Origin: Apostichopus japonicus
Lineage: Eukaryota; Echinodermata; Holothuroidea; Aspidochirotida; Stichopodidae
Assembly (NCBI RefSeq): GCF_037975245.1
Contig: NC_092577.1
Location: forward strand, 33,066,398 to 33,130,397
DNA length: 64,000 nt
Direction of reading: 5' to 3'
Shown: positions 6,069 to 58,981 of the stretch, one piece after another
Layout of the letters: each line of letters begins with the position of its first letter
Numbering within the stretch: the first letter of the stretch is position 1
Notes under the pieces: model-generated
Databases searched by the model: none
What the model saw: only the letters and a program-made list of their open reading frames with translations
Told to the model about the DNA's origin: nothing
Position numbers and translations under genes: made by a program

Positions 6069-9000
6069 TTATATCGCGACCTGGAAAGCATCAGAGCTGT
6101 CAGAGCAACTACCAATGGATTGCTTCTGCGCATGTGTAGGAACTTCACTGAAGCCGTACGTAGAAGATTGTTCAGAACCACCATTAAAACAAGCGCCCTC
6201 TAAAATGGCGTTCGATTCGTGCTCAATTCCCAGCTGGTTAACCCGTTGTCGTTTATTAGGCTGGATGAAAACCTCGTCGTCATCATGCTGAGGTTCGACG
6301 TTCTGTTCACTTCGTTGGTTCGTGTCGTGTGTTACAATCGATTGGTTAATCGGTAGCACTTGGCCATTCATTCCTGTGAATGAATCTGTTGAAGAGAGGG
6401 CGCTATTCCGTTGATACATACCGCTTTGCGTCGAGTCGGGAGACGTGAGTGGAAACGAGGACTTGAATTGTTCGATAACCGACGAATGAGGGTCGTTTTG
6501 TTCAACACTATGACTCCGGTCGAATTGTGGCGGGAAAGCTGCCTGCTGCTGATGATGATGGTGAATGGTTGTCACGGGAACGTGCGAACGATCGTTTGCA
6601 AGATGGCGCAAACTGAACAGGCCATTCTCGTACTGGTTCGATGCAGACGTTGCGTTCAGTGTCGACGGAAAACTACTGTTGGGTGGTGATGGCTGGCCTC
6701 CAATGTTACCTCGTGTCGCAAAACTGTTGTAGCATCAAAATAGAAACGTAAGTGACAGGAATATTTGTCTTCACTACTTTAATTGTTAAATTACAAAACA
6801 CAGTGGATTTTTGTCTTGTGGAAAACATTGCATACTGTCATACCTTTACACTAAATATAACTTATGCGTTCACCGTCACCACCTCCCCCTCCCCCACCCC
6901 AACAAAGGAGAGTGGTACAAAAGTAAAAATTGAGGAAACGAGGGGCAACATCCAATTTATTTTTTCCCTGCAATGCTTAGCAATATATATAGAAACTGTT
7001 ATTTCTCGACTGATAAGAGGTATTCTACTTCATGTAAAAAATTGGTCCTGGATTGGTGGCGCTATTCATCATCAAAAAAGAAAAAGTCATTGAAAATCTG
7101 CTCTACTTTCCTAACTAAACAGTCTCAACAAAGCCATCACGCGCTGGCGTCAGCACGCATTTTAAGACATTACTTCTATGCAGAAAGATAAGTGTTGCGT
7201 TAATAACGACTCCATTCCATGGCCAATATTTGGTCGCCCAGACAATGTTTCACTAAATTCAAATTGTAGATTTTCAATATTCTTGAATGTTCATACAATA
7301 TTTTGAATGAAACCGACCTAGACAGACAAAAAATAATTTTCAAAATTTACCGGATTTTAAATTTTCTCACACAAATTAACTCAAAAAAAGTATTCAGAAA
7401 ATAGAAGAAATAACTTCAACTATATAAGAGAGACAGAGACAGAGGTTTGTCAACTTACGTGGAATAGCCGTCACGGAATCCTTTGGCAAATGGATTATAG
7501 TCTATCTTAAGCTGGGTAATCTGCAAGAAATAGATATGGATATATTCGTGTTAAAGACACTGAAGGGAAGATTTTAAGTACGAAGGGTCTCTGTCGGAGG
7601 AGTGGTGGGGTACGGGGTGAGGTGGGTTATGGGTGGGCATAGGAGGAATAGGGTATAAGGTCAACATGATAGTTTGCATGCATTTCATCTTAAAACTGAC
7701 AGTACAAACAAGATGTTTCAGGATGAAGGAAGAAAGTCATAGGTAGTGATGAAGACATAATCTGCAAAAAGTCAATCAATCAATCAATCAACCAATCGAA
7801 CTTATCTATATACTATAAACCTTAACATGTTATTAACTAAACATCAAAGAACGATGGTTCTCAAATACTGGAAGCTCTCTTGGTGGATGCTGGGGTACCG
7901 TAGTAGGGTGGGTGGGATATGGGTCGATAGAAGGGATACGGATGAAGGGGCAACAGTTATAATGTGAATTGTAATTTTTAGTTCTTACACTCAAAGTTGA
8001 TTTCTAATTTTAAGTATCAGATGGAACGTTAATTGGCAGAGTGGGATTAACACCAAAAATAATGACAAAAATAGACCTATACTCTACCCCTCCTGCAGCT
8101 TCCATCTACCCCCCACCCAACCCCCCCCCCACACCCACTTTATTGACGGTAAATAATATCAACTTACGTCTGTGTTCTGGTAAGCGGTGACGGCAAAGAA
8201 TTGAGTTTCTGCAAAACTGTGCGTCTGTAATGTCCTGCTGTTTGTGACGTCGAGAACATGAATACGGGGCTGGTACTTGTGCATGGAACTGAGAACAATC
8301 TATAAATATAGGAAAATGAACAACCAATGAATCAGATGTGTATAATAGACAAAAGGAAAAAATTATTAATGATTAATAAGACCTATTATTTTCCCTGATT
8401 ATGCTTTTGTTTTCCCTCATGTGTATTTATTACTAAAGCTACCAGTCTTTTTCTTTTCTTTTGTAAGTTTTTTTTTATGTAAATTTATTAATAGCCATAT
8501 TTGTTAATACACATTGTTTTGAGCATTTGTTTTTCCGGATTACAATGTGGCAACTTAACCCATAATAATCGATTCTTTGTTTATTTCAGTGAAGGACGGG
8601 GAGGGGTCACGGTGCATGTACCCATAGACAACCCTCCCCCCCCCACTAAAATCCCCAACTCTCTCCCACTTACCGCGCTCGCTCACATGGCGTCTGTCGT
8701 GGGACTCCAATACAGTACGATTCGAATGTTTAACCCTGTAAGCATACCAATGTTTGCGTCAAATTATCAAACACAATTTGCTTTTGTCCACTCATTCCAA
8801 CCGGAAGTAAACTGACCCTAAAACCTCACCTAGAATTCCCTAATGTACTATCACCGCAATTATTAATAACTTCCTGTTTGAAAAGCCTAGACTTAAAAAT
8901 TGCCTCTCCACATATTACTACTAAGTAGCGCTAACAATTTAAAGATACGTATGTGATTGAGCACTATACCAAAGGAAAAACTACAAAGTCATTTCTCCTC

Positions 9001-11198
9001 CAAACTCCCTCCCCTACCTCATCCCTCAACCTTCCTCATGTTATTGTTGTCATTGTTACTAAGATGTTTGGCCACACCCCCGTGTTTTCATTCAGTAAAA
9101 CTTATACTAAGATCGATGTGAAGTGTATAGTCTGTGTACAAAATCATTTATGCTAGAAACTTACAAATTTGTCGTTCTTTCCTTTGTGATTGGTCAGTTT
9201 AATTTTACTGAAAATAACTTCATTCTTCATCCAATAGGCCCCCGTAGCTGGTGAATCTGGGTGGACGTAGACGTTACTTGCTAATAATAGTAAGAAAAAT
9301 AAAACAATACATGATGTTATAAATCAATACATTAGTTAACGTTTTACTATCATAATTATCCAACAAACACAATTTTTTTTTCCAACACTGGACAGGTAGA
9401 GGTTTGCTATGTTACTATTCAATTAAATATAAATAAATTAAGTTAAATGGGATTAATTAAGTTTGCCTGAACCACATCAAGGAATATTCCAATGGCTGAA
9501 GTTGATTGCGTAACAACATTTTTGTCAATTTCCTACATAATGTTGGTCGTTCCTGATGACCTTAAAACAGGTTTGCTAAACTTTGGGGATCAACACAATA
9601 ATTATGCAATGGATGTCTTCCAAAGTAGTAATTGACTTATAAGAGCTCTTGATCTGACCATTGTAGAGTTGGGATAATAAGTAATGTTTAGTGACGCTTC
9701 ATTCTAGAAAACAATAGAATGTTATATCATTTTAATTCTATAGGAATTAAAACTAAAGGAATTTACTAGCAAGAAATATTATAATTCAATATATTGATTT
9801 ATCTATTTTGATTTATTAACGGAACAGCTTTCCGAGAACAATATATGACTAAATGTCTGCTATTACCCTAACTCCAAATGGAATCACCCATGACGGGAGA
9901 CTTCTAATTTAAAGGTTTGCAGTATTGGCCCCAAATATACTAGATATTCAAATATGGTCACCTTTGGTCAACATTCTTAGACTCTTTTTATTACAACCTT
10001 CGAGGAAATTTTCCTCACTGTGACATTCAGTCATCTTGTGTAATCCTTAAAAAATGTCTGAGAACAATTTTGAGAGTAAAGACCTCCAGGAAAGTACTTT
10101 TTGAATTCTTCTAGCAATCATAGCCTTCTATAATTTGGGGCCTATACTGACTACCTATTATGTATACTCACATTTAGGGATACTTTCCGCTTGTCCACAC
10201 ATTGCCCACTTTCCGCAACTGAATTTCCATTGGTTGGGATCCGCGAGAACCATATCTACCATGACGTTGTACTTAGTCTCTGGCTCGAGTCCTGTGAAGC
10301 GATACGACAACTGGGGAAACATCCGCCTACATACCAAAGAAATTAGACAAATATACAGAATTATGAAATGTACAGTTAAGGGTGCGGGTGGAGCGAAATG
10401 AAGAGTTGTAACAGTGACTTCTTTCAGAAACCAAATATGTTTACTTAGTTTTCTTTTCCTTAAATGCGAGAATAGTCGCCCCCCCCCCCCTGCCACCCCT
10501 CTCACCCAGTCCGTGAAGATTAGAAATTTGCTGGATCAATTCTTTCATCTCACCAGTCGGATTCTTCCATTTATTTATTACGGGGTTGCAGCAGTAAAGT
10601 TGGTTTGTCATCATAATTATTATTACTATTTCCCAGATTATTATCCATGCAGCGAAAAAAAATCTTGGTATTCTCACATTTGCATCACTTTTTATCCCCT
10701 ATATTGGATGCTTTAAAGGAATAAAGTAAGGCAAGTGTCACTTTATTAGTTTACTGTTATGCACCATGAAGCTGTATATGAACACAAACATTATCACAAA
10801 AGCATGAATACAAGGGAAATAGATATTCTAAAACTTTGAAAGGAATTCTAACAGTGTATTGTGAGGTTTTGTGTCTTTGTTGCAATATAGTTTATCTAGC
10901 GTCTGTTTTGGTGCCACTGACTATTGGTGCCTATTGTCATGTGTACTTGTTGTAACTTCTTGAGCACCAAGTGCAACCACTGTTTATTGTGTTAAGTATT
11001 GAGTAACCCTTACCATTTGAGAAATATTGTAAAGCTATAGGGGGTGCTCAGATGTAAATTGTGCTATAATTTGCAGTTATGAAATAATGTTCAATTAGTT
11101 TCTTTTGTCCAGGTTGTGCCGCATATGCATGAAATATATAATATAATAATATTAAGTAATACAAAGTAATACAATAAAATAAGTTATATATATTTATA

Positions 11199-11283
<85 letters not shown>

Positions 11284-11375
11284 ATATATATAATTCGAAC
11301 CCGGGCCTCCCGCTTTATATGCAGACATATAATATATAAATAATATTAAGTAATACAAAATAATATAATAAAATA

Positions 11376-11432
<57 letters not shown>

Positions 11433-12677
11433 TACCCCCCCCCCCCCGCCCCCAAGAAGACTATGTGGCTGTGCCACACATGTCTTCTCAAAGTGATACT
11501 TCATTTAAACTACGCGTGCACGAAGTGTTTAGATGATGTACCATATCCCGCTATGATATTGTCCATGTCGTTGCAACAAAAGCTAACATTATCCATGTGA
11601 CTTGATCCTTAATGTGGCTATGAAAGCATCACTGGTTCACCAAACCTCCTAAAATAAGGTTTCTATAAATTTAAATATTTTATATGAGAAATAGCCTTTC
11701 ACGTGGGAGAGGTTGTTCTGAGTGGCTAAGAATTGACAGGAAGTGCCGGGGGGGGGGGGGTGTAGGTTATGATTTAAAATGACAGCGAAAAAAAACCGTT
11801 CTATGTCCTACCTTCCTTGTTTCGTCACGATCATCTCTGTGCCATGATTGTTAAACTTGAGCCATAATTCACGATTGCAAAGAAACACAGAGGCCTTCGT
11901 TGGCAAGATAATCATTTCATTTAAAGGTGGTAATATCGGGGGTGACCTGGAGGCTCTATCGTCATCGTGTTCCTCTGACGATGTGTTCGGCTGTTCTTCG
12001 GTGACGCTCGTCTTTGGATCGGATCTGTTCGGAGTAAGCAAGCAGCCGTCTCGCGTGTCCCGAAGATCGATGGTACCAGCTTCCACGGTAGCATGTATTG
12101 AAGTTGGTAGTTTATCCTTCAAGGTTTCAGTTTTCCTTTTAAGGCAAAGAGCTTCGTTCTGTGGTGGGAGCTGGGAGGTATAATCTTGACCGGCTAACGA
12201 TGGGTATCCATAGTGGTATGGTAGGAAAGACATGACCGGGTACGATGGAGCATAACCTTGAAACTGCATACCCGATTGGTAGTTCTGACCGGGTCCACCT
12301 GTCATAAACGGTGTCGGAGGGTAACGAGGTACCATGGCGTTATTGTTAAACTGTCCATTAAAGCTGCTGGGCTCAGATGATCGTCCGAATTCGCACGAAG
12401 GACGAGTTGGTTCCCGTTGCCAATTAGGGTACCATCCACCGCCATCTTGTTGAGTAATTGATGAGTGGAAATATGTAGGTGGGAAAACTGGATGAATGGA
12501 CGGAACTGTTTGTTCTGGCGAAGAACCAATTGAAGAAGAATCAGGACGAATGACGTCAGTTTCCGGATTTTGTCGATACATATCGACGGTTCCACGAATT
12601 GCACACGAAGACGACTCGCTTTCCGATGAGTTGATGAAATTCCCACCGTCAGTTTGCGTACAATAATTTGCAGGCAT
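6069..12677 (-). CDS. tbr: T-brain / eomesodermin-type T-box transcription factor
   Basis: Exons in transcript order (minus strand) are 12677-11812, 10326-10172, 9280-9165, 8299-8168, 7520-7459 and 6723-6069 (stop TAA). All introns are GT-AG, and the lengths sum to 1986 nt (661 aa). The ATG at 12677-12675 opens MPANYCTQ. Residues 1-261 are a low-complexity, Ser/Pro/Tyr-rich N-terminus. Residues about 262-441 are a full T-box. Residues 444-661 are a Ser/Gln/His-rich tail with an HHHHQQQ run. Subfamily markers are TKQGRRMFP and [10 protein letters not shown], typical of Tbr/Eomes/Tbet rather than Brachyury or Tbx2. It is a nuclear DNA-binding regulator. In echinoderms T-brain acts in mesoderm and endoderm gene networks (established); the role here is inferred. 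The gene is complete, with no frameshift. Confidence 0.93.
9909..10160 (+). mobile_element. TTAA MITE, family M2 copy 1
   Basis: It starts TTAAAGGTTTGCAGTATTGG and ends with an imperfect inverted copy (GGGGCCTATACTGACTACC) that stops only a few bases short of the splice donor of tbr exon 2. A second copy in opposite orientation is at 46758-46996, and the two match along almost the whole length. It is non-coding. Confidence 0.8.
11139..11430. repeat. Compound TA microsatellites with duplicated AT-rich flank
   Basis: Pure TA runs lie at 11201-11280 and 11379-11429. Each is preceded by a near-identical AT-rich unit (ATATTAAGTAATACAAA..AATAAAATAAG) at about 11145-11186 and 11339-11377. A SINE fragment sits between them. 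The whole lies in tbr intron 1. Confidence 0.85.
11292..11325 (-). mobile_element. Fragment of tRNA-derived SINE (family C)
   Basis: The minus strand reads CTGCATATAAAGCGGGAGG, then GGTTCGAAT. This matches the anticodon arm and B box of the fuller SINE head at 22427-22492. Both ends are lost in TA repeats. Confidence 0.6.
11431..11458. repeat. Poly-C tract after the TA repeat
   Basis: A C-rich run of about 20 bases directly follows the second TA microsatellite. It is one of many C or G homopolymer tracts in the window. Confidence 0.7.
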
Positions 12678-15600
12678 GATGAGTGGAAGTTATAAATAAA
12701 ATATTAAAAACTCCAAAAATGTACAGGAAAAAAGAGAGTAAATAACGAGTTCCGCAGAGTAAAATTAAATACTTGAGGATATCGCGGTGTTTGGTGGTTT
12801 ATCCATGCAAGAAACTCCGGTCAGTTTCTATAAGTTTTCCATTGAAGTCCTTTCCTCTTCGATATACATATACAAGGCAGTGAACTTGAAGACACCTCCT
12901 GCACACCGTTATGAATTCACACCATGCACTATACAAGAATAGTATAACATAACACTATACGCTTCGCAGCTTGTTCACTCGTTACGTAATATTACTACGA
13001 TGAAAGCTTCAATCGAAATGGGAAATCAAAGTTAATTGAGGCGCATTCTCAGAGGAAGAGTGCTGCGTGTGACCAGCACAAATAGACTCTTTTCATTGGA
13101 TGGAGAACCTCTGACTCTTGCCCTCATTTGAATGATTGACAGCTGTGCAACAACAGTACCCTAATTTGACCCTATATACCACGAATGAATAGGCGCGGTT
13201 AAAAAACATGACGGATTAACTCCTCGTTAAGTCTTTAAGCTTTTTTTCCCCTTTCCTTCGCGTCTTGTCCAGGAAATGGTAATAGTGGGAGAAAATATCC
13301 AAGCTAAAGTTCGACACAAACCGATGTGAAATGCAAACAATGTAGATAGATACCAAGGAGAGAGATTTATTTAGAAGTGTGAATAAACATTAAAGTGGTT
13401 ATAAAAGTATCGTGGGAAGAATGTGCATATAATGTTTGCATTCAGTGAAGTGAAGGAAGGATGTACGACGTCGTTTTTAGTCTGATTTAGTAATAGCCAA
13501 ATGTATAAACGTATTATTCATATTCAATTAGTTCACAAATTGAGAAGTTTCCATATGTAGAACAGACAAGAATACATGAGTAACCGTTATCCTTCCTACA
13601 AAACACTCTTTATCCAAAACATCAAAAGTCACCACCGCCCCACACCCTTCCCAATATCGAACAGGTACGTTATAACTATATCGTATTTATATAGGGATGT
13701 TAACACACTTTAAGATAACTCCAATCGAGAGCATGGGGGAGGGGGTGGGTCATCGTGGGGTGGGCGTGAAAATTCTCCCACGTGAGAGACACATATTCCC
13801 CAAAGAATGTAAAGAATTTAACCCCCAGGAATTATAGCCAGGGGTGCATATACAGCCATTCTTCTTTTTTGTTTTTCTTGGGGAGGAGGAGGAGGGGGAG
13901 GGTGGTGGGGGTGGGGGAAGGGGAAGGGGAGGTGGGATAGATATATTTCGAGACCTGCTATGGCTTTGTTGAAACTGACAGCAGTAATTGACTAAGCAAG
14001 ATGTATCACTGTTAGGTGGAAACAAACGTGGGGGTTGGGGAAGGAAAATGACGTTGCGTGTCGGATGCAAAGCTTGGGTTACCATTATAAAATGATATCA
14101 GAGCCCTGCTGAGGGGCCGGCAGTCGGAGGCCGAGGCCACACCAAATAATGATTATTATTCGGGCCTTTTTTATTTTAAAGATGGAAGTAGAATTAGTTT
14201 CTTAAGCGAATTGCCAGTGGTAATAAATTATATGCTCTCATAGTGAGAATCTAATAAGTTGATTGAAAATTTGGATACTGGTTTAAGAATTGAATTAGCC
14301 ACCTGGTCCTTTCATAATGAGAGGATGGGGGAGAGGAGGACGCTGGGGCCAGGAGGATATATACAGCCCAGGGGTTAGGGTTATGGTTAAGGTTGACCCC
14401 CCCCCCCCCCCCCGGAACAGCATTTTAAAGGTGCTGTTGGTCAGTATTTGTGTGATGTATTTGGTGCCGTTCGTGTATACGTAGAAGGTGTACTAGAAAC
14501 CGTAAACACTAAGTTGTTTCAATCAACCAAATTAGTACATCATTTCATTTCAGTTGAGTTCAACAGACACAGCTCCTTGTTATTCAATTGCAGCACTCTA
14601 TGCGAATGTTCCACTTAATTAATTGTTACGTTAAGCTAGAAGAGAAAGCCTCTTGTCTCGAGGTTCAATTGATACCTGGATGAAGTAAATCCCTTAATCA
14701 GACGGTCTGTCACATTTATTAACCTGATGAACTTGAAAGGTTATAATCACGATGATGACCATTCAGTGTATTGATTCATTAAGAGCATGATTAATAAAAT
14801 TCAAAGGCTTCGTGTACAACAGGCGTGTGTACAACGGTTGGAACACAACTGTCCAACTGATTCCGCGAAACTATATGCGGTTCTTCTTTCCATCGTTTAT
14901 TGCAGCCATATTTAGTGGGGCTCTCCTTAGGTTTTCTTCATAAGCTAAACATAAGCTATAAACTAAACTGAGAGGAGGTTTCGGCTCTGTGAGATGGGCT
15001 CCTATTTTAGGAACCCCGGTGGGTAGAGGGCTTGGAAGTAATACTACTTCAGTGAAGTTCTGGGAATAGCCCAGCCACCAGGGAGCTTTATTTCGTGGAA
15101 GGGTGGATATGCCAGGGCTTCTCTACTTTCGCGCCACTTTCTCATTTCCCCCATTTAAACTGCTTTTTCAATCCTAAAGCTCGGTCAGGCTTGTCCCCCT
15201 CCCCTCCGCCACCCCCAGCCCGTCACCGATTTTTTCACACCTGTGCCCTGCACTCCTTGAAAATGATCTCCACCACGTACAAAACTTGTTACGGTAAATG
15301 GATACTATTTTAATGTTGAAAGGACTAGGAATGACCATGTTTACATTAGTCAGTGAATTTATGTATATAATTTTGCAGTAAGGAAAAGCAATTTGTTAAC
15401 AGTTTTTTATTTTATTTAATAATATTTCACTGTAAAAATTAATCGAAGTCAAAGTATCACAATCTTTGTATATGGAACGAGTCAGTATGAGGCAGTTGAC
15501 GGAGAAAATTAGTTTTAGAAGGGAATATGGGTGGGGTGGGAGGGGGGGGAGGGGATACTCAATAGGCAACAGAACAATGATCTAATTAAACTTTTCTGTT

Positions 15601-20569: not shown

Positions 20570-23500
20570 ATGTCGGCAAGAATAAAGCGCAAACCAGCCA
20601 AGTATTTAGAAGAAGGAGAAATACCAGCTGTACAGTCCCCTCAAGTGCGGACCCCTACTCCTACCACTACTCCTACCCCTACCCCACCCAAACTGCCTTC
20701 GAAAAGAAAACTTGAGGCGAAAGAAGAACAAAACAAAGCAGCCAAGAAACCGTTCAGGAGTTGCGAAAAGCAGAGATGTCCCGCAAAGCTTCCAATTTGT
20801 TTTACCAACGCGACAGAAAAGTATGTATTTTTTGTGTTTTTGTGTATGTGTGTTATGAACCCTTTGCACCCTGAATTTTACATCCATGGGGATTGACATC
20901 CTAACCATAAGTTTTTCAGACATAAATATTACCACATTGTGGTCCCAATACTGGTGGTACTGTAAGCTTGGGCCGAATGTTACTGGTTGATGATCCTTGT
21001 GTAACATTAGGTCTAAATCTAGGCCCGTATGTTACTGGTTGATGCTCTGTAACATTAGGTCTAAGACTCTAAGTCTAGGCCTAATGTTACTGGTTGATGC
21101 TGTGTAACGTTCGGCGTAAGTCTAGGCCTAATGTTACTGGTTGATGCTGTGTAACTTTCGGCCTAAGTCTAGGCCTAATGTTACTGGTTGATGCTGTGTA
21201 ACTTTCGGCCTAAGTCTAGGCCTAATGTTACTGGTTGATGCTGTGTAACGTTCAGCCTAAGTCTAGGCCTAATGTTACTGGTTGATGCTGTGTAACATTA
21301 GGTCTAAGTCTAGACCTAATGTTACTGGTTGATGTTGTGTAACGTTAGGCCTAAGTCTAGGCCTTTTCTTACTCCTAGTACTAACGCTAGTATTACCATA
21401 AGTATCACCCATTAGCATAGGCCTACTGTCATCCAAATCATTGCTAAAATCGTCATCAAATTGGCTTTCAAAACCACTAGAATTGCCGTAATCAGACACG
21501 TTCAAATCTTCGTCCTCATCTTGAAGTAGCAGCATCAGAGCTTTGTCAGTCGACATTATTTTTGATGTCATGTTTGCGATTTTTCTGTACGAATTTCGGT
21601 CAAAAATTCACTGATGGAATGTGCACATGGAATCTAGTGACTTTGTTCCACACCCTACAGTAACAGACTCTTTCATTGTCTTAAAGTGGGAAAACCCCTA
21701 TTGCATCATGTGAAAGCTGCTCTGTCAGCTTTTTCGAGTTACTGCAGTTTCACAGGAAAGCCGCTATAGCGGCTTATATGGTTGTAAGGGTTAAGTAAAT
21801 ATGGCAGCTTTGTTCAAATTTGTGCTTAAATATGATTTTATTATCTAGTAATATTAGTATCTCAACAGATGCTTTAAAAAATCATTAATCGTCAAGGTGT
21901 GATTATCCCTCCGACCAAATTTCCGGATAACAGACTTTGCGAGAATCTATGGCAGTTTGAATATATTTTTTTATCACAATTTGAATATTGGATCTAACAG
22001 AATCTTCTCTTCTGCAGGTGCGCTGGGGACACTTACACATCACGGTGGTACCACATGTCGGCCGGAGAGCATTTCTGCAATGAATGTTTTGATCATTATT
22101 ATAGGAGGTACTGTATGATATATACTGGTATTTCCACCAGCATTTTTAAAGGATGACTTAAGTCTTTAAGTCTTTAGTCTAATATTTGTCATAAATTGTC
22201 ATATTTCTTGAGAAAATAATAATTCATAAAGTGTTTAAACTCTATTGTAGGAAACAGTAAGTTAGAACCATCCTTATCAATTTCTTTGCCTTCTTTCGTT
22301 CATTTCACTTATCAATAAATAAATGAATCAGTATCTTTGTGTGTGTACAATAATATACAAATGCCTAAAGTGGAATTACGACCTTCCTTATCGGTTTTGA
22401 ACCTCTGGACATACATTCAGCGTCCATTGCCAAGTGGTTAGGTTGTCCGCATATAAAGCGGGAGGCCCGGATTCGAATCCTGGTGGAGGCTGGAAGTTAT
22501 TGCACTGTTCTGGATTTTCCAACTCACTACGATTTCAATATATAACGTATATTGTGTGTGTTTGTATAAAGGTACAGATTTTGACATATTTTCCCGTCAA
22601 AGATTGTCGTAAAAAACATTGTTGTTCCCAGTGTCTTTCTTATCTCCTGCTGTTTTCATACCTTCCTGCATCCCATAACGCCATATTTCATAATTTGGAC
22701 TTTCATTGGATATTTGGTTTCCTAATTAATCTTTCTTTTACCCGCCGCAGCCATAGGGAAGGTTACAAGCTGTTCTCTGAATGGAAGCGGGAGTGGAGTA
22801 AGAACGGCAAGACGGATCCAAATCTGAAGACCTACATGGCTGATCAAGTGCTTCCGTATTGGGTCCAGTGCAACAAGCAGTCGTGTAAGAAATGGCGCCC
22901 CCTACCCCCTCGGAAGGACCTGACAAAGGAGATAATCAGTTCGTTTGTATGCGATCACGCAGATAACAAGGCTGTGAGTAGTCAAAGACAGAAAGCTAGT
23001 ATCGATAAAGTCGTAGTCGATTACAAAAACTTCTTTAGTCGTTATAGTTTTCCTGGTTTTCAAATTTGTGCTAAAATTCTGGACTGCTGACTTGAAGGGA
23101 CATTGAGGACATCGACTCCCTCGTCTCATCGTAAATGTCGTTGGTTCACTTTCATTTTATAAATTTGAGGCTCTATTTGACAGTAGTCTTGTTCCTATTG
23201 ATTTCTTTGTTACTGCGGAGGAATCAACCTCATTTACTAGACCGCAGGAGGGAGGGCAAATTTTAAGTTCACATGTAGCCTGCAAGCAAACTTTCTGCAG
23301 CCCTTTAAATGGATTTTCAAAAGTCTATTAACACTTCATTATAACAGAGAAATCTCTCTATCGAACGGATAATCCACCGAAACGATAAAGTTCACCGATT
23401 ATCTGAATGGTAGAATATGAAATATTTTTACTTTTCGGAGTTTGTACAGTTTTTTGCAATAGGATATTTCAAACCTTTTGTGAGGAGGAGTAAACCAGTG

Positions 23501-26500
23501 CTAGCATCTGGACCTATTTTTCATCTGGAACAATCAATGACTGGCTAGATATGAGAGTTGTGGAATATCAGAATGCATCCAACCAACCATCATAAACAGT
23601 TGAATCGAAAATATATGACAATGATTTATTAAGTAATTGTCATCGATGCGCAAAACAAAATACCAAATTAAAAATAACTGCAAAATACAAACGAAAAAAA
23701 CGGCAGTTTTTGGCGTCACATTTCGAAGAACATGTTTGGACAAAAGATAATAGATCTGGTCCTGAAAGGTCCGTAAAAGTTTCTTTCCAGCTTTTCGTCT
23801 TTCTTTTTCAAGTTTTCAACTGTCATTTAATTTTACTTAGGGAGTCGGTGACTCTTGCGAGTGGCCGCAGGACCCAAGGGTGAATCAGGTTTTCGATGAT
23901 ACATGGCTTCAACTTCTGATGACCCCTCCCCTTCTGAAGAGATCCCCTGCCGCTCAATTCCTGTCCGCCTATTTTCCAGATGGGGTCGGATTAAGCCCTA
24001 CGAGTCAAAATCCAGAGGAAGTAGATAATAGTGAGTTGAAATGGTTGACTTGTTTTCTGTACATATGTTTTGCAATGCAAGTTTGTGGAAAAAAGCAAGA
24101 TGTTTAAAAGCAACAGAGATGGGCCCTCAAGGTTTAATCTAGAAATAACCAAACTTAAGAGAAATCGGAAGAGTATGGTCAGACTACTACATCTACTGAT
24201 CAGACCGGTGCTTGTTCTGAACCAGCTTGTAGGCAATGTTATCGGAAGGTGGGTGAAGGTGGGGGAGGGGGAGGGGAGTGGGCAGGTGGGGAGGGGATGA
24301 TATTGATTGCTACATGACATATCTATGGATTTCAAAATGGGACAAGCCAAACTCATCAAATTATGGAAAGAAATTATAACCTTAGTAATCTCTGTATGTT
24401 CATTTAATACATAATTTATTTGTCATATTTAATGTCATTTATTTGAAATTAAAACCATAATAATCATAATAATCTTTGAAACAGATGACACTCTCAAAGA
24501 ATATCTGTGCCTCCACCATATACCCAAAAATTATTGGAAGTTTGTACAATTTTTGTTAACTTTTTTTTTCTTTTTTTTTCGGGACCAATTCTTCTTTTTC
24601 TACCAGAGTCTGTACCAAAGTCGTACTTTCAGCCTTTCTACCAGCCTGACGAACAAGGCCGGGCCCTCTGTGTCTGCGCGGATGTGATGGACTTTGACGA
24701 GGTCCAAGCGTTCCCACAATTCGCAAAAGAACAGCAGATGTATCTGGCAGTACGGAACCTGATACTAGCGTTATGGGCCAGAGACTGTAAGGTAAGGTGG
24801 CCAGAAATGAAATGGACTTGATACATTCCAGCAGAAAATAAAGAAACATGAAGTCCATTGGCAGCATGGTTGTCGAGTCCGGGCCCAGCTTGAGGGGGGT
24901 TTTTGGCAACTTTTCGGTTTTATTGAAAGTGCTAAGAACTCCAAATGGTGGTGGTTGGATTTGTGTCCCCTTTAATGCTGCTTTTGTTTGCAGACTACAA
25001 CTTAAACGTTTTCTCAATTAACTACACATTTACTTCTTAACTACTCATTAACTACTCATTGTCTTTGCAGTAAAAGTAGAACATCTGTATGTAAGAATAT
25101 GACAAATATATATATATATATGTAAATAAATATAACTGAAATCGTAGTGAGTCAGAAAATCCAGAACATATATATATGTTGATACTAGTTGGGACTAGTG
25201 GAACACTAGTAGTTGTAACTTGGAGTTTCACACGTTTTAGCGATCATCAGACAACTCTATATATATATTTATATGTATATATATATATACATGTGTGACA
25301 TTTTAATTCTCAAAGAAAAGAGTGTAAAATGTGCAAAATTCTTAAAATCTCCACTAACTGTTTTGTGATGTTTTCTTTCATGTGTATCTCGGCAGGAATT
25401 TCTTACAGAAAGCAAATGTGCACAGTATCTGCTGGTGAGGGGCTTGGTCCGTATAAGCTGTTCCAATTTGTTAGAGAGTGTTTTAGTCTTCCTCACGAGA
25501 AAAGGTCTCGTCAACACAGGTCTCCTCACGGGAATGCCAACAGAGCTTCAGAGTAAAGCGAAAACACCACAGGTGAGGGGGAAGTATTCGTTTGGGGTGG
25601 GGGTCAGCGGTGGGGAGACAACAGGGGATCATTATGTTGTATACATGATGCAATACATTTGTATTATGCCTCTTGTGTGCTTGTACAGAACTTTCAAGGT
25701 TTGTAATCTCAAATTGCAACACTTTCCACATTTTAGACTTTAAACTGCAACACTTCCACATTTTAGACTTTGAACTGCAACACTTTTCAACATTTTAAAC
25801 TGTGGTTTGCAACACTTTCAACATAATAAACTGGATTGCAACACTTTCAACATATTAAACTGTGGATTGCAGTGCTTTCAACATTTTAAACTGTGGATTG
25901 CAACTCTTTTCAACATTTTAAACTGTGGATTGCAAGGCTTTCAACATATTAAACTGTAGATTGCAACACTTTCAACATATGAAACTGTGGATTGCAACAG
26001 TTTCCATATATTAAACTGTGGATTGCAACTCTTTTCAACATTTAAACTGTGGATTGCAAGGTGTTCAACATATTAAACTGTGTATTGCAAGACTTTCAAC
26101 ATTTTAAGCCTTGGACCATAGCACTATCAAGTTCAATAATTTTCAACCTTCTCTAGTGCCTGGTCTCCTAAGACAACATTTGCAAATTTAAAACGTATTT
26201 CAGTGCTTTCAGCATTTCATGTATTGGACCTATATACACAACATGACATGCCATAGCAGTGCTTTCAACATTTAATGTATTGTACAGAAGTACTCAATGT
26301 GCTATGCCATAGCATTGCTTTCAACATATAATGTATTGGACCTAAGTACTCAACGTGCTATGCCAGAGCAGTGCTTTCAACAAATTTCAACATTTTGTAG
26401 TGCCCCATCTCCTTGATCAGCATGTTGATCAACATTTACAATCTTGGATTACAACACTATGAACATTTTAAGGTTATTTGACATATTAACATCGCAATGT

Positions 26501-29500: not shown

Positions 29501-32500
29501 TTACTCATCTCCACTGGTATTCAATAACACACTATGACTATGTGGTATGTGTCAATATTAACACCCCACAATAAATCATTCTTTGTTCTTATGGGGTTCT
29601 GATCGTTCATTAAGTTGACGCTCAACAGTCGTTCAACTTCTTCTTCACGACTGCAAGGTCAAGTCAGGTCGCGTTCAGTCAGTCAGTGTTCTGCGGCCAG
29701 CCATAGGGTCACAAGCATTTCGATTCTCAATGATCACAAGCCCACATTTGTTTGCCCCCCCCCCACAGGTGTCGTCGCTCCACTGGGATCAGAACGAAGC
29801 CTTTGCGCAGTTCGCAGGAGATCACGTGCTGCTCAGTCGAGGTTACAGCGCAATCTTAGAGAAGCTCAGCTCGGGACTCGACGTGAGGATGAACCAAGAA
29901 GTGAAGACTATCAACCACTCAAACAGTCAGCTAATCGTCAAAACAAAACAGGGACTAGAACTGAAATGTTCAAGGGTAAGTCTTTAATTTTCCATAAAAC
30001 TTTTGACCTTTGACCTGACCAAACACATTATCGTGGTAATTTTTGTGGATAGAGATGGTCATTTCTGTGGAAGGAAAATTGTGGGATGTGGTAGTAACAT
30101 TTAAAAAACTTTCTTTGCTTGGTGGTTCTTTGCCTTCGCCACTTCACTATCACTTTAATAATAACAGGCATCAGCAAAATTTGACTTCGAAGTTACAGAT
30201 TTGAGACTGTTTCTGCTCTCTCACAAGTGTTTCCTTCTTTGCAGGTCATCGTCACATTACCGCTTTCACTTTTGCAAGAAGGTCGGATAACGTTCGAGCC
30301 CTCGTTGCCATCAGAAAAGACCAAAGCGATTTACGCTCTTGGAGCTGGGATCACGGAGAAGGTGAGAAAGTAGCTCATAAAATACAACTGATCAGAATTA
30401 TGTTAAATATTGGTGGATGAAATTTTTGTGAAGGGGCTTGGGATGCAAATTAGCCAACCAGGCATGCAGGTACTGTTTCTGTTCCTGGTAAAGTTTACAT
30501 AAACCTACGTGTTACGCATATCTCGTCAATATGATGCCTTCTGGCGTGACAATCAAATTTCTACACAGCAGTTACAAACTTTGGCCTTAGCCGAAACAAA
30601 CTCATAATTTACGTGCCTCACTTTTCAGGCAGTGAAAATGAAAATGAAAGTGTAGAACAGTTAAGTTTTCAGGTTTGGCAAAACATGACACATAGTGGAA
30701 CATGTGCACCATGGCAACCTAACTGTAAAGGTTTACTATTGAAGCACTCTAAACTGAAATGTATTCTAAGATTAAATTAACAATTAGAAAATGTGAGTAC
30801 CACTGACTATATATTCAACTGTACTGCTGTACTGTGTACAGGGATGTGCCCACGCTGGGCAGCACTGGGCGGCCCCGCCCAGCACTAAAACTTACCACCC
30901 AGCACTGTCTTAAAAATCGTGAATCCCGCCCAGCACTATTATCATCTAAAATCCCGACATTCGTAACATTATATTCAACATAAATTGGGCCACATGTATC
31001 CTTGATTCCCCCCATTTGTCAAATTCACGTAAACACAGGTGTGGAGATATGGAGTAGGCGTGGCTTTAATCTGCAGCATGCAGTATCACACTACACTAGC
31101 TCTGTATACAACTTCAAAAATCAAAAAATGTCAACCCTCCCCTTAGACCCCTCCCCCAGGACGGCGATCAGTATACCCGGCACTCAGGAAATCCTGGGCA
31201 CATCTCTGTGTGTATAGTGCTGTTGCTTGTATTCTGTGTCCATCATGGAATATAGAAGGCACTTAAATATTGACACAGATACATATTTGTCATATTCTAT
31301 GCTTTTCAAGTTTAAGATAAAACTTGACCTCTACTACTAATAAAATTTCCTAATTCCGCATCATTCATAAAACAGAAATGAAATTGAAGCACTTTTGTCA
31401 TATATTGGAATTAATTGACCCGTAATATCTGATCGATTTAAACACTTACCATCTGATTAATTTATACTTTATATTTATTTTTTGTATATTTATAGGTGAT
31501 ATTAGAGTTTCCTATCAGATTTTGGTCAGATAGAGTCCAAGGGACTGAATATTTTGGAAGACTTCCTACCTCAGCCAAGGACCGAGGGTTCTTCTCTGTC
31601 TTCTACGATATGACTGGAAACGTAAGGAACAGATATTCTGTTAATATTGCGTCCACAAACATTTCAGAGAGTGAACAAAAAAACTACTTTACTACTGCAA
31701 AAAAAACCTGTGAATGGGTGCCAAGAAAGAAGGCGACCTGACATTTTGATCCTAGCAGGATCTTCTTCAAAGGCAATACTGAAACGAAAACAGGAAGGGG
31801 GAGACATTGAATCAGAAAAATGGAAAGACAACTAAAGCAGACCATGAAACAATGAATGAAAATGAAATTGAATATTTCAGACGAGTTTATTTATATATAT
31901 TACAAAAGGTGATACAAATAAAGTAAAATAACATGCTTATTGTTTACTTTTGACAGTTTTGACAAATTTACATTTATTGACCATTTGGCTGTTATAAAAA
32001 TTGTTTTTCCTTTTAAAAAAACCGTTAGGGATAAATCGAAAGCAATTTAAATAGTGGCTGTGTCAGTTGTCATGAATTGATGTGAATTTTGCCAGTATCT
32101 TTTCTCATGCTCACACATTGCGATAATAAGCAGGCTAATTGAGGTCATGTGACAGAAAGCTCCAATGAGAGATAACTTTTAACCTTGTCTATTAAAAAGC
32201 GTGACATTTCTACCAACAAGCTTCACAAACTGACAGTAGGACTAGAACAAAACTTGGCACAGGTTTTTTGTTATAAAGAAATTCACAAATTTAAGATTTT
32301 TAGTCACCTATTAATTCTCTTCACTGTCTGACATGTTTGTAGGAAGATAAGTAGAGCGGGTTCATATTGATCACGTATTAATTCTCGTCACTGTCTGTCA
32401 TGTTTGTAGGAATATAAGAAGAGCGGGTTCATATTGATCACGTATTAATTCTCTTCACTGTCTGTCATGTTTGCAGGAAGATAAGAAAAGCGGGTTCATA

Positions 32501-34718
32501 TTGATCACGTATTAATTCTCTTCACTGTCTGACATGTTTGTAGGAAGATAAGAAGAGCGGGTTCATATTGATGTCCGTCATCAGTGGAGAAGCCGCAGAG
32601 GAGATGAAATCCATGACAACCGAAGACATCGTCTCAAAATGCATGACATACCTGAGGGGATTGTTTCCAAATCAGGTAATATGACCCGCCAACCTTCTAC
32701 ATGAATATACACCAATAAAGAATGCTCTCGCGTACCGAAAGCATTCTTTTCAGTAACAACGACTGGAAATGGATTAAGTCAAAATCAGATTTTGTATCCA
32801 GGAGATGCCACCACCTCTTTAATCATCGTCATATATATCTGTTTAAAGGGTGTTAAGACTCGCGCAAAAGAAACGTCTAATGCCGGTAATCTGACCTAGT
32901 TTCAAATGAGGTGTAACAGAAGTGTTAGACACCACCATCGATCCCAGAAAATACGCCCACATTTTGCTACCTTCGGTAATTAGACACTAGTGTACAGTCA
33001 GTACATACAGCTGCGGTCAATACCCACAGCACAGTGTACAAACAATACAGCGATGGACATCTCAGGTCCAGCTAAAGATAACAAGGTATCACGTTTCATT
33101 ACTGTCTGCATTTTGTAGCGACAAGCAGAAAACTTCACTTGCAAGCAACAGAAAGTTAACTTTCCCAGAGCGCCACACACGGTTTGGGGCGAGTCTTCAA
33201 TGCCTTTAAGCAAGAGAGCCTGCCATTTCGATCTCAGCGGGGTCTTCTTCAAAGGCAAACAGTTCTTGCCTACGAAGATGGGCAGGATAGCAATTTCAGG
33301 CCCTCTTATGTATAAATTTGACCTGCACAGTGCTATTTTGCAGTAGATTAGCCGTTTCTTAACATTGTTTTTTCCCCTCTTTGACATAGATATCTGTGGG
33401 ATATGTGGTCGTTTCTTACTGAGGAGGAGATAGTGGGGAAAAGTTGTGAACAAAATAGGAGGCACTTTAGAGGGCGCCAGGAGTATAGGATATGTCAATG
33501 GCTTAGGTTTTAGTACTTTTAATGAAGTTTAAAGAAAGAAACGAAACATGTCCCGATTTTCCTGTAATCTATGTGATGTGTATTTCTATATTTTGCTTCC
33601 TTTCGAGGCCAAATATTAATTACATGGGGAGGTCGTCAAGTTGATAATGAGGAAATATATTTAGAGCAAGCTTGTAATTGGAACAGTTTAAAAATAATTT
33701 ATTCATATTCCTCTTCTCATCAGCTTTATTGCCTGCTCAATGATTTGTACAAAATCTTTGTAGTATTTCTTCTTTCACCAAGTGGTTGTAATAAGCTTAT
33801 AGTTAGCCCCATGCAGACAATAACACCATCTGCCTGGATTCTAATATGCAAATTAGTCTAGTTACATATAGTATGAAGCCGTTGTAGGGATAGGTCTCAC
33901 TAGGACGAGTACCCTTTCTCTCTGTTTTTTAAAAATTTTTTAAGGAAATTTCTTCTCCCCAAATTTTTCCTTTATATTAGGAAAGGTAAAGTAGGCTGGG
34001 TGTAGAGGTCAAAATTATATGAAAATATTTGCGGCATATAGTAGTGAGTTTAACTCTTCAACGATTGTTTTTAAGGTTTACAATTTCCCTTCTGCAAAAG
34101 TCTGTTGTGACATGAATGAAAACAGAATGTTTTGCACTCGTGTAAATGTTTTGCACTTGTGTCCTTACTTTCTGCAGAGTGTACCTGAACCGACAAAGTC
34201 TTACGTCACAGAATGGTACAAAGATTCCTTCAGTAAAATGTCCTACAGCTACATCAAACCAGGAGGCTCGGGAGAGGTCTACGAGACTTTAGCCGATTCG
34301 GTGAACGATAGAGTGTTCTTTGCTGGAGAGGTGAGAATAAATGTCTAAAGGTTCATCTGTTAGTAGGCGATAATACTTGAATGTTTAAGTGTCACTAATC
34401 TATTTTTGTTCATATTCTGGATTCTGTATAAAGGATAGTTAAGAGCCTTTGGAGGTCAATTTCTAAATTCCTTCACTAATTTAAATATCTTCGATATATT
34501 AATATCAATGTTCCAGTTCTGATTTTATGAATTATATCTTGTAGGCTTTCTATCGACATGTCTGTTACCCGATATCATCGTTGCCGTTGTGATACCCTTT
34601 ATTTTCTTTTTTGATCTGGATCTAATTTCAGGCAACAAACAGACAGTTTCCGCAGACAGTAACCGGAGCCTACCTGAGTGGAATCCGAGAAGCCACAAAG
34701 ATCATGGAAATCACATAA
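20570..34718 (+). CDS. KDM1B: Lysine-specific histone demethylase 1B (LSD2), FAD-dependent
   Basis: Coding exons: 20570-20820, 22018-22107, 22751-22973, 23841-24030, 24607-24791, 25396-25572, 26641-26850, 27864-28035, 28760-28887, 29769-29975, 30245-30361, 31496-31621, 32544-32675, 34178-34330 and 34632-34718 (stop TAA). They sum to 2448 nt (815 aa; human LSD2 is about 822), all GT-AG and frame-consistent. Domain order is C4H2C2 zinc finger, CW zinc finger, SWIRM, then amine oxidase, the order that separates LSD2 from LSD1. Known chemistry of the family is oxidative removal of methyl groups from mono- and dimethyl H3K4 in the nucleus, using FAD and oxygen. The start [12 protein letters not shown] follows a -3 A; earlier GTG-started frames are not real starts. 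Nothing in the catalytic part is broken. Introns are unusually rich in minisatellites and mobile elements. Confidence 0.96.
20975..21365. repeat. 47-bp minisatellite, about 8 copies
   Basis: The repeated unit contains ATGTTACTGGTTGATGCTGT, GTAAC and CTAAGTCTAGGCCTA. Unit starts fall near 20979, 21030, 21084, 21131, 21180, 21227, 21273 and 21320. The last five intervals are 46-49 bp. Confidence 0.9.
21275..21571 (-). pseudogene. Truncated piggyBac-type transposase N-terminus
   Basis: An ATG at 21571 opens [17 protein letters not shown], followed by a strongly acidic, serine-rich stretch ([23 protein letters not shown]) and a basic RSKKRPRLR. The frame then runs into the 47-bp minisatellite and stops at 98 aa. 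An acidic, disordered N-terminus is typical of piggyBac transposases. The catalytic DDD region is absent. Assignment rests mainly on the flanking termini. Confidence 0.5.
22424..22540 (+). mobile_element. tRNA-derived SINE head, family C
   Basis: A box GCCAAGTGGTTAGG, an anticodon-like arm CCGC-ATATAAA-GCGG, and B box GGATTCGAATCC are in tRNA order and spacing. The acceptor stem does not close, so it is a SINE head rather than a tRNA gene. A truncated relative is at 11292-11325. The 3' limit is uncertain. Confidence 0.65.
24607..25572 (+). other. KDM1B: KDM1B SWIRM domain (coding exons 5-6)
   Basis: Residues about 252-372 read [44 protein letters not shown] and [13 protein letters not shown], matching the SWIRM region of LSD2. 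In LSD2 this domain packs on the oxidase and the zinc-finger module and has no DNA-binding helix role (established). The exon junctions (phase 1 in, phase 0 out) agree with translation. Confidence 0.88.
25690..26520. repeat. 31-32-bp minisatellite grading into longer degenerate repeats
   Basis: From about 25725 to 26110 the unit AAACTGTGGATTGCAACACT plus TTCAACATATT recurs roughly twelve times. From 26200 to 26400 a longer unit of about 60 bp containing TGCTTTCAACAT, ATGTATTG and TACTCAA recurs. It fills the KDM1B intron before the FAD-binding exon. Confidence 0.85.
26945..27117. repeat. 42-45-bp minisatellite, 4 copies
   Basis: The unit TATTGGATAGCCTATTCCTC, TTAACTGTGGGTTGTATTTC is repeated with GCCTAT at 26961, 27003, 27045 and 27090. 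It is intronic in KDM1B. Confidence 0.9.
28355..28465 (+). repeat. G-rich tandem repeats
   Basis: A 29-bp unit (GTGTTTGGTGGGAAGGGTGG) occurs twice from 28361, followed by two copies of an 18-bp unit (AGGGTGGGAAAATGAGT). The plus strand has repeated GGG runs that could form a G-quadruplex in the nascent RNA or DNA (inference). Confidence 0.8.
29025..29575. repeat. 115-bp minisatellite, about 5 copies
   Basis: Units begin with CTTGTATTCTAGCATAGCTC near 29030, 29133, 29248, 29362 and 29477. The unit also contains GTATTCAGTAACGCA, ACATGACCATGTGG and ATATTAACACC. It lies in the KDM1B intron before coding exon 10. Confidence 0.9.
31738..31775 (-). other. Hammerhead-like hairpin motif, copy 1
   Basis: The minus strand reads TTGAAGA, then the palindrome GATCCTGCTAGGATC, then AAAATGTC. 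It is the same motif as at 33219 and 41994. The GAAA box has mutated to AAAA. See the findings for the ribozyme comparison. Confidence 0.45.
32311..32572 (+). repeat. 67-bp tandem repeat duplicating the KDM1B exon 13 splice acceptor
   Basis: Four successive units carry TTAATTCTCTTCACTGTCTG, CATGTTTGTAG and GAAGATAAGAAGAGCGGG. The AG-exon junctions fall at 32343, 32410, 32477 and 32544, exactly 67 bp apart. The last is the real acceptor. Each upstream copy holds about 38 bp of intron end and 29 bp of exon start. Confidence 0.95.
32843..33209 (+). mobile_element. TTAA-bounded MITE, family M1 copy 2
   Basis: A 367-bp copy of the 2142-2509 element. The right terminus is intact (GAGTCTTCAATGCCTTTAA). 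The left terminus is mutated (TTAAAGGGTGTTAAGACTCG). It lies in the KDM1B intron between coding exons 13 and 14 and directly abuts the hammerhead-like motif at 33219. Confidence 0.85.
33219..33257 (-). other. Hammerhead-like hairpin motif, copy 2
   Basis: The minus strand reads TTTGAAGAAG, an imperfect hairpin around ACCCCGCTGAGAT, then CGAAATGGCAGG. The GAAA box is intact; the hairpin stem is degenerate. Confidence 0.4.

Positions 34719-42336: not shown

Positions 42337-58981
<16,645 letters not shown>

What the first reader, a model, noticed from the sequence alone, without database searches (positions are those of the whole stretch)
32311..32572. Tandem-duplicated 3' splice site with in-frame stop decoys in KDM1B
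The acceptor of coding exon 13 lies at the end of a 67-bp tandem array that copies the end of the intron plus 29 bp of the exon. Acceptors at 32343, 32410 and 32477 look as good as the true one at 32544. Using any of them adds 201, 134 or 67 nt and reads TAG or TAA within 4-13 codons. This could be a poison-splice switch that lowers KDM1B by NMD, or a neutral expansion masked by choice of the last AG.
Basis: partly seen in the sequence, partly recalled or inferred. Interest (0 to 1): 0.75.

Follow-up and report, generated by a model that had tools for sequence, protein, structure and literature searches.

The report
Minisatellite spanning a KDM1B splice acceptor
In what is most likely a sea cucumber's histone-demethylase gene, a short repeat carries the signal that marks where an exon begins four times in a row; only the last copy gives a working protein, and the array is most likely an accident of a repeat-rich genome, not a built-in off switch.

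Summary
Positions 32304-32572 hold four head-to-tail 67-bp copies (2-5 differences between any two), each with candidate branch points, a pyrimidine tract, an AG and 28-29 bp of KDM1B coding exon 13. Splicing to copy 1, 2 or 3 adds 201, 134 or 67 nt and meets a stop at codon 4, 13 or 13, 160-321 nt before the next exon junction. Only copy 4 (exon start 32544) gives KDM1B-like protein.

The 'poison switch' reading gains nothing from the stops: 99.5-100% of shuffled inserts hold one. The genome has an echinoderm mitochondrial code and most likely is Apostichopus japonicus. Minisatellites cover 5.3% of 200 kb sampled from the same chromosome, so one crossing an acceptor is no great surprise, though 0 of 60 kinase exon starts examined were crossed. 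By a hand-made matrix, copies 2 and 3 score above the true acceptor and copy 1 equals it.

Best reading: a non-adaptive, stepwise expansion. Copy 4 makes the productive mRNA, helped by exon definition and an intact purine-rich block; copies 1-3 probably leak a minority of NMD-sensitive mRNA. No RNA evidence was available.

The parts
31496..31621 (+). KDM1B coding exon 12, ends phase 0 (AAC|GTAAGG donor at 31622)
   Evidence: translation and PDB alignment
31622..32543 (+). intron 12, 922 nt when the last acceptor is used
32304..32370 (+). array copy 1: decoy acceptor AG ends 32342; exon copy carries TAG in place of AAG, stop at codon 4
32371..32437 (+). array copy 2: decoy acceptor AG ends 32409; stop TAA at codon 13
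32438..32504 (+). array copy 3: decoy acceptor (CAG) ends 32476; highest-scoring of the four; stop TAA at codon 13
32505..32571 (+). array copy 4: the acceptor that keeps the frame, AG ends 32543
32544..32675 (+). KDM1B coding exon 13, 132 nt, phase 0-0 (skipping it would stay in frame)
34178..34330 (+). KDM1B coding exon 14, 153 nt
34632..34718 (+). KDM1B last coding exon with its stop codon

Best explanation
A minisatellite grew by tandem duplication across the intron 12/exon 13 border of KDM1B. Shown: the four copies, the stops, and one place for the array in the genome. Inferred: the first event joined exon '...TTGAT' to intron 'CAC(C/G)TATT...' with one shared T. Inner copies were then added (copies 2 and 3 share T at unit position 28 where 1 and 4 have A; copies 1 and 4 differ at only 2 of 67 sites). 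Productive KDM1B mRNA uses the acceptor of copy 4, because both flanking introns are long (922 and 1,502 nt), which favours recognition across the exon, and because copy 4 alone keeps the whole purine-rich stretch GAAGATAAGAAGAG and adjoins the rest of the exon. Copies 1-3 compete, and probably divert a minority of transcripts into mRNAs that NMD should remove. The array is a by-product of a repeat-rich genome, with a possible mild cost, and not a selected switch.
For: Array anatomy. Only copy 4 gives the open KDM1B frame that matches PDB 4gu0. Minisatellites (period 30-200, 1.9 copies or more) cover 5.3% of 20 x 10 kb of the same chromosome: 31 arrays in 200 kb, 21 of them with 3 or more copies. 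Stops are uninformative. 3 of 3 exon-part changes sit in the decoys' purine block and 0 in copy 4, as decay of unneeded copies would give; but the block is half of the 28-nt part, so chance is about 1 in 8 (my arithmetic). One match for the array and one KDM1B in the genome. Copies differ from each other, which argues against assembly stutter, and the assembly it appears to be was built from PacBio HiFi reads.
Against: No RNA was seen. Copies 2 and 3 score above copy 4 and copy 1 equals it, and copy 4 is the weakest of the 12 used KDM1B acceptors scored, so on signal strength alone the last site should not win; the matrix is made from recalled base frequencies. Human 3' splice-site pairs tend to favour the upstream site. 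0 of 60 kinase exon starts had an array crossing them where 2.3-3.2 would be expected from coverage (my arithmetic, chance about 0.04-0.10), so such arrays may be disfavoured, and survival here could mean tolerance or use.
Confidence: 0.72

Rival explanations
1. A selected poison-splice switch: decoy acceptors lower KDM1B through NMD in a regulated way, with array copy number setting the level.
For: All three decoys give stops 160-321 nt before the next junction, with a further 153-nt exon before the last junction; decoy signals equal or exceed the true one by the hand-made matrix.
Against: Stops are expected of any insert; many poison exons are described as highly conserved (start of the abstract of PMC11357089), and conservation could not be tested here; the 10 papers listed of 185 hold no mention of KDM1B.
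Confidence: 0.08
2. The decoys win: most transcripts of this allele use copy 1-3 acceptors and the allele is a hypomorph or near-null.
For: Copy 3 scores best; upstream preference in human 3' splice-site competition; BRCA1 duplication of intron 9 end plus exon 10 start retained in mRNA.
Against: The coding frame over exons 12-15 is intact and human-like, as expected of a gene still under selection; the BRCA1 assay used primers for the altered allele, so it gives no ratio.
Confidence: 0.12
3. The array is an artefact of, or private to, this one assembly or animal.
For: Only one genome was available.
Against: Copies differ from one another at 7 unit positions, no indels; the assembly it appears to be is built from HiFi reads, which should span 269 bp easily.
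Confidence: 0.06

Closest known systems
Disease-type tandem duplication of an acceptor with part of its exon (BRCA1 intron 9/exon 10, PMC11839443, passages read)
   Same: Copies the end of an intron with the start of its exon; the copied intron part kept in mRNA gives a stop after 10 residues.
   Different: One extra 2,012-bp copy, classed as pathogenic; here three extra 67-bp copies in a genome assembly, RNA unseen.
[quoted passage not shown] Zhuo et al. 2007 seen only as a reference)
   Same: Tandem duplication multiplies splice signals; those copies hold premature stops, so NMD may act.
   Different: Those units carry an acceptor followed at once by a donor (AG/GY) and make new introns; here AG is followed by GAA, no donor is copied at the junction, and only acceptors multiply.
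Alternative 3' splice-site competition under the proximity rule (PMC9225289: abstract, section 4 part 1, section 9 and passages read)
   Same: Near-equal acceptors 20 nt or more apart compete at first recognition.
   Different: Natural human pairs; here four near-identical sites in what is most likely an echinoderm.
Poison exons / AS-NMD (starts of abstracts in a listing)
   Same: Stop-bearing isoforms predicted to be NMD targets.
   Different: No separate cassette exon, no shown regulation or conservation.

Membership tests
Minisatellite (tandem array, unit about 10-100 bp) | Head-to-tail units with high identity | tested here: met
   67 bp x 4.0, 94%
Minisatellite (tandem array, unit about 10-100 bp) | Copy number varies between individuals | not testable with these tools
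   one genome only
Alternative 3' splice sites | Complete acceptor signal at each site | tested here: met
   four AGs in the top 1-8% of 3,485 plus-strand window AGs by a hand-made matrix; branch points only as candidates
Alternative 3' splice sites | Junction reads at each site | not testable with these tools
   no RNA data in the tools
AS-NMD / poison splicing | Stop more than 50-55 nt before a downstream exon junction (rule recalled) | tested here: met
   160, 227 and 321 nt to the exon 13/14 junction
AS-NMD / poison splicing | Stops beyond chance | tested here: not met
   99.5-100% of shuffled inserts hold a stop
AS-NMD / poison splicing | Regulated use and conservation | not testable with these tools
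   no RNA and no related eukaryotic genome
Intron gain by tandem duplication | Acceptor followed at once by a donor (AG/GY) in each copy | tested here: not met
   each AG is followed by GAA

The most novel reading that the evidence does not exclude
A copy-number rheostat: the number of 67-bp acceptor units sets what share of KDM1B transcripts go to NMD, so that a length-variable repeat tunes a histone demethylase between animals.
Probability: 0.1. Interest if true: 0.75.

Novelty: new member of a known kind. Interest (0 to 1): 0.35.

Why it matters
Four almost identical natural acceptors in a row, differing by a few bases in tract, AG or purine block, form a ready-made competition test of upstream-site preference against exon definition in an animal with long introns. 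If copy number varies between animals, it would also link a repeat to gene dosage. If neutral, it is a small example of how a repeat-rich genome tolerates splice-site copies.

Tried and rejected
Recursive splicing or intron birth from the array: rejected, since each of the four AGs is followed by GAA and no donor is regenerated at the junction. A transposon or repeat family as source: rejected as far as tested, the 269-bp array has one match in the genome (that search skips very common words). A second KDM1B copy or retained haplotype to compare copy number: none among 15 matches, 12 on C17 in this gene and 3 on C21 at 30-44% identity, taken by recall to be KDM1A. The AG at 32303 as a fifth acceptor: it scores -5.75 against 1.61 or more, so set aside. 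Design in the stops: rejected. Branch points: TTCAC (A 19 bases before the last intron G; GTCAC in copy 2), CTGAC (A 11 bases before it; lost in copies 2 and 3) and TATTAAT further up are candidates; I could not choose.

Literature: searches listed no report, by title and start of abstract, of a natural minisatellite array that copies a whole acceptor. They cover open PMC papers only; two searches asked for all terms and found 0, and one search gave nothing on this gene in the sea cucumber among 8 listed of 229.

Errors of mine: one search used a wrong-frame peptide; one search translated three isoforms one base off (redone); one search scored three wrong positions (24605, 24623, 28757; the first and third redone as 24606 and 28759, the second dropped); one search used a too short end for the exon that begins at 25396, as its frame runs on in a KDM1B-like way (seen).

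Full report
What is there. The array at 32304-32572 is real: four 67-bp units, no indels. Unit positions 1-39 are intron (ending in AG), 40-67 are exon; with the T shared at the join, 29 exon bases are copied. Copy 4 is followed by the rest of coding exon 13 (32544-32675, 132 nt). The joined exon pieces match KDM1B in the PDB (4gu0, E 3.8e-211), and the exon 12-14 stretch alone gives E 2.5e-39. At the start of exon 13 this protein has three residues more than the human one in that alignment.

Isoforms. Splicing 31621 to 32343, 32410 or 32477 stops at codons 4, 13 and 13. The stops lie 321, 227 and 160 nt before the exon 13/14 junction, and exon 14 (153 nt) precedes one more junction, so by the recalled 50-55 nt rule all three are NMD candidates. 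The stops say nothing about design: 100%, 100% and 99.5% of 5,000 shuffled inserts of 67, 134 and 201 nt hold a stop before the end of exon 13.

Signal strength. A matrix made from recalled base frequencies gives the four sites 1.61, 3.29, 5.21 and 1.61. The 11 other KDM1B acceptors scored lie between 1.82 and 9.82, so the true acceptor is the weakest of the 12 used ones scored; those of the exons before 23841 were not scored. Copy 3 has CAG and a T in place of an A in its tract. Each decoy has exactly one change from copy 4 in the exon part, all within the 14-nt purine-rich block, and copy 4 keeps it whole. The block covers half of the 28-nt part, so three of three has a chance of about 1 in 8; the enhancer role is recalled knowledge, not tested.

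Which site wins. Both flanking introns exceed 250 nt (922 and 1,502 nt), the class called exon-defined in PMC9225289 (passages). There, competing 3' splice sites of similar strength show an upstream preference that is strong for short introns and 'significantly reduced' for long ones (section 9), while the abstract states that sites closest across the exon are preferred. That mixed picture suggests that copy 4 is used but that leakage is likely. A BRCA1 duplication of the same plan kept the copied intron part in mRNA (PMC11839443, passages), without a ratio.

Origin and setting. The window lies in a 671,581,487-base genome of 35 contigs. Its mitochondrial COX1 reads AAA as Asn and ATA as Ile at well-known places (the places are recalled), as in the echinoderm code. 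The size fits the A. japonicus assembly: 671.60 Mb in 34 scaffolds, 23 chromosomes of 18.21-46.02 Mb, HiFi reads (PMC10344927, passages). Matches at megabase positions fall on contigs numbered 1-23 only, and among the 21 contigs whose length I saw the shortest is C23, 18.20 Mb, and the longest C16, 46.04 Mb. Close but not identical, so the name is an inference. In 20 stretches of 10 kb from the same chromosome, 31 arrays of period 30-200 cover 5.3%, and 21 with three or more copies cover 3.8%; the window has 10 and 7. Of seven arrays of period 29 or more that I listed by hand between 20971 and 32572, only this one touches one of the 13 exons (some edges approximate) used in that comparison; the next nearest lies 94 bp away.

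Control. Of 134 kinase matches I took 60 that start inside the domain, with 300 bases before and 150 after the match start. Six of 60 have a tandem repeat of 75% identity or more in that stretch; in these six it ends at 107-267 of 300, before the match start, though two (L067, L078) end only 33-38 bases before it. The same test on KDM1B gives 96% at period 67. So 0 of 60 cross, against 2.3-3.2 expected from coverage; the sample was picked by me, probably holds paralogues, and exact exon starts were not mapped.

Verdict. A real, tidy and apparently uncommon accident: a minisatellite that copied a whole 3' splice site. The poison-switch idea is open but has no evidence beyond layout. The history (copies 1 and 4 oldest, 2 and 3 sister copies) is read from 7 variable unit positions and is only the simplest account.

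Noticed in passing
window 53423-53985: A perfect (AT) run of 281.5 copies (563 bp) just after a CUB-like reading frame (CUB by recall).
   Followed up: no
window 22419-22492: ARAGORN calls a tRNA-Tyr with the odd anticodon ATA inside a KDM1B intron; probably a false call or pseudogene.
   Followed up: no
window 6069-12689, minus strand: Reading frames that look like a T-box transcription factor gene (recognised by recall).
   Followed up: no
window 45692-58778, plus strand: A row of LDL-receptor-, CUB- and Frizzled-like reading frames, perhaps one secreted or membrane protein gene or a cluster (by recall).
   Followed up: no
G000 contig C29:14745-31219: A second, broken-up set of five COX1 matches on another contig, a nuclear copy or a mis-assembled mitochondrial piece.
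   Followed up: no
L067 and L078: Two kinase exons have long tandem arrays ending 38 and 33 bp before the match start, so arrays can come close to acceptors here.
   Followed up: partly
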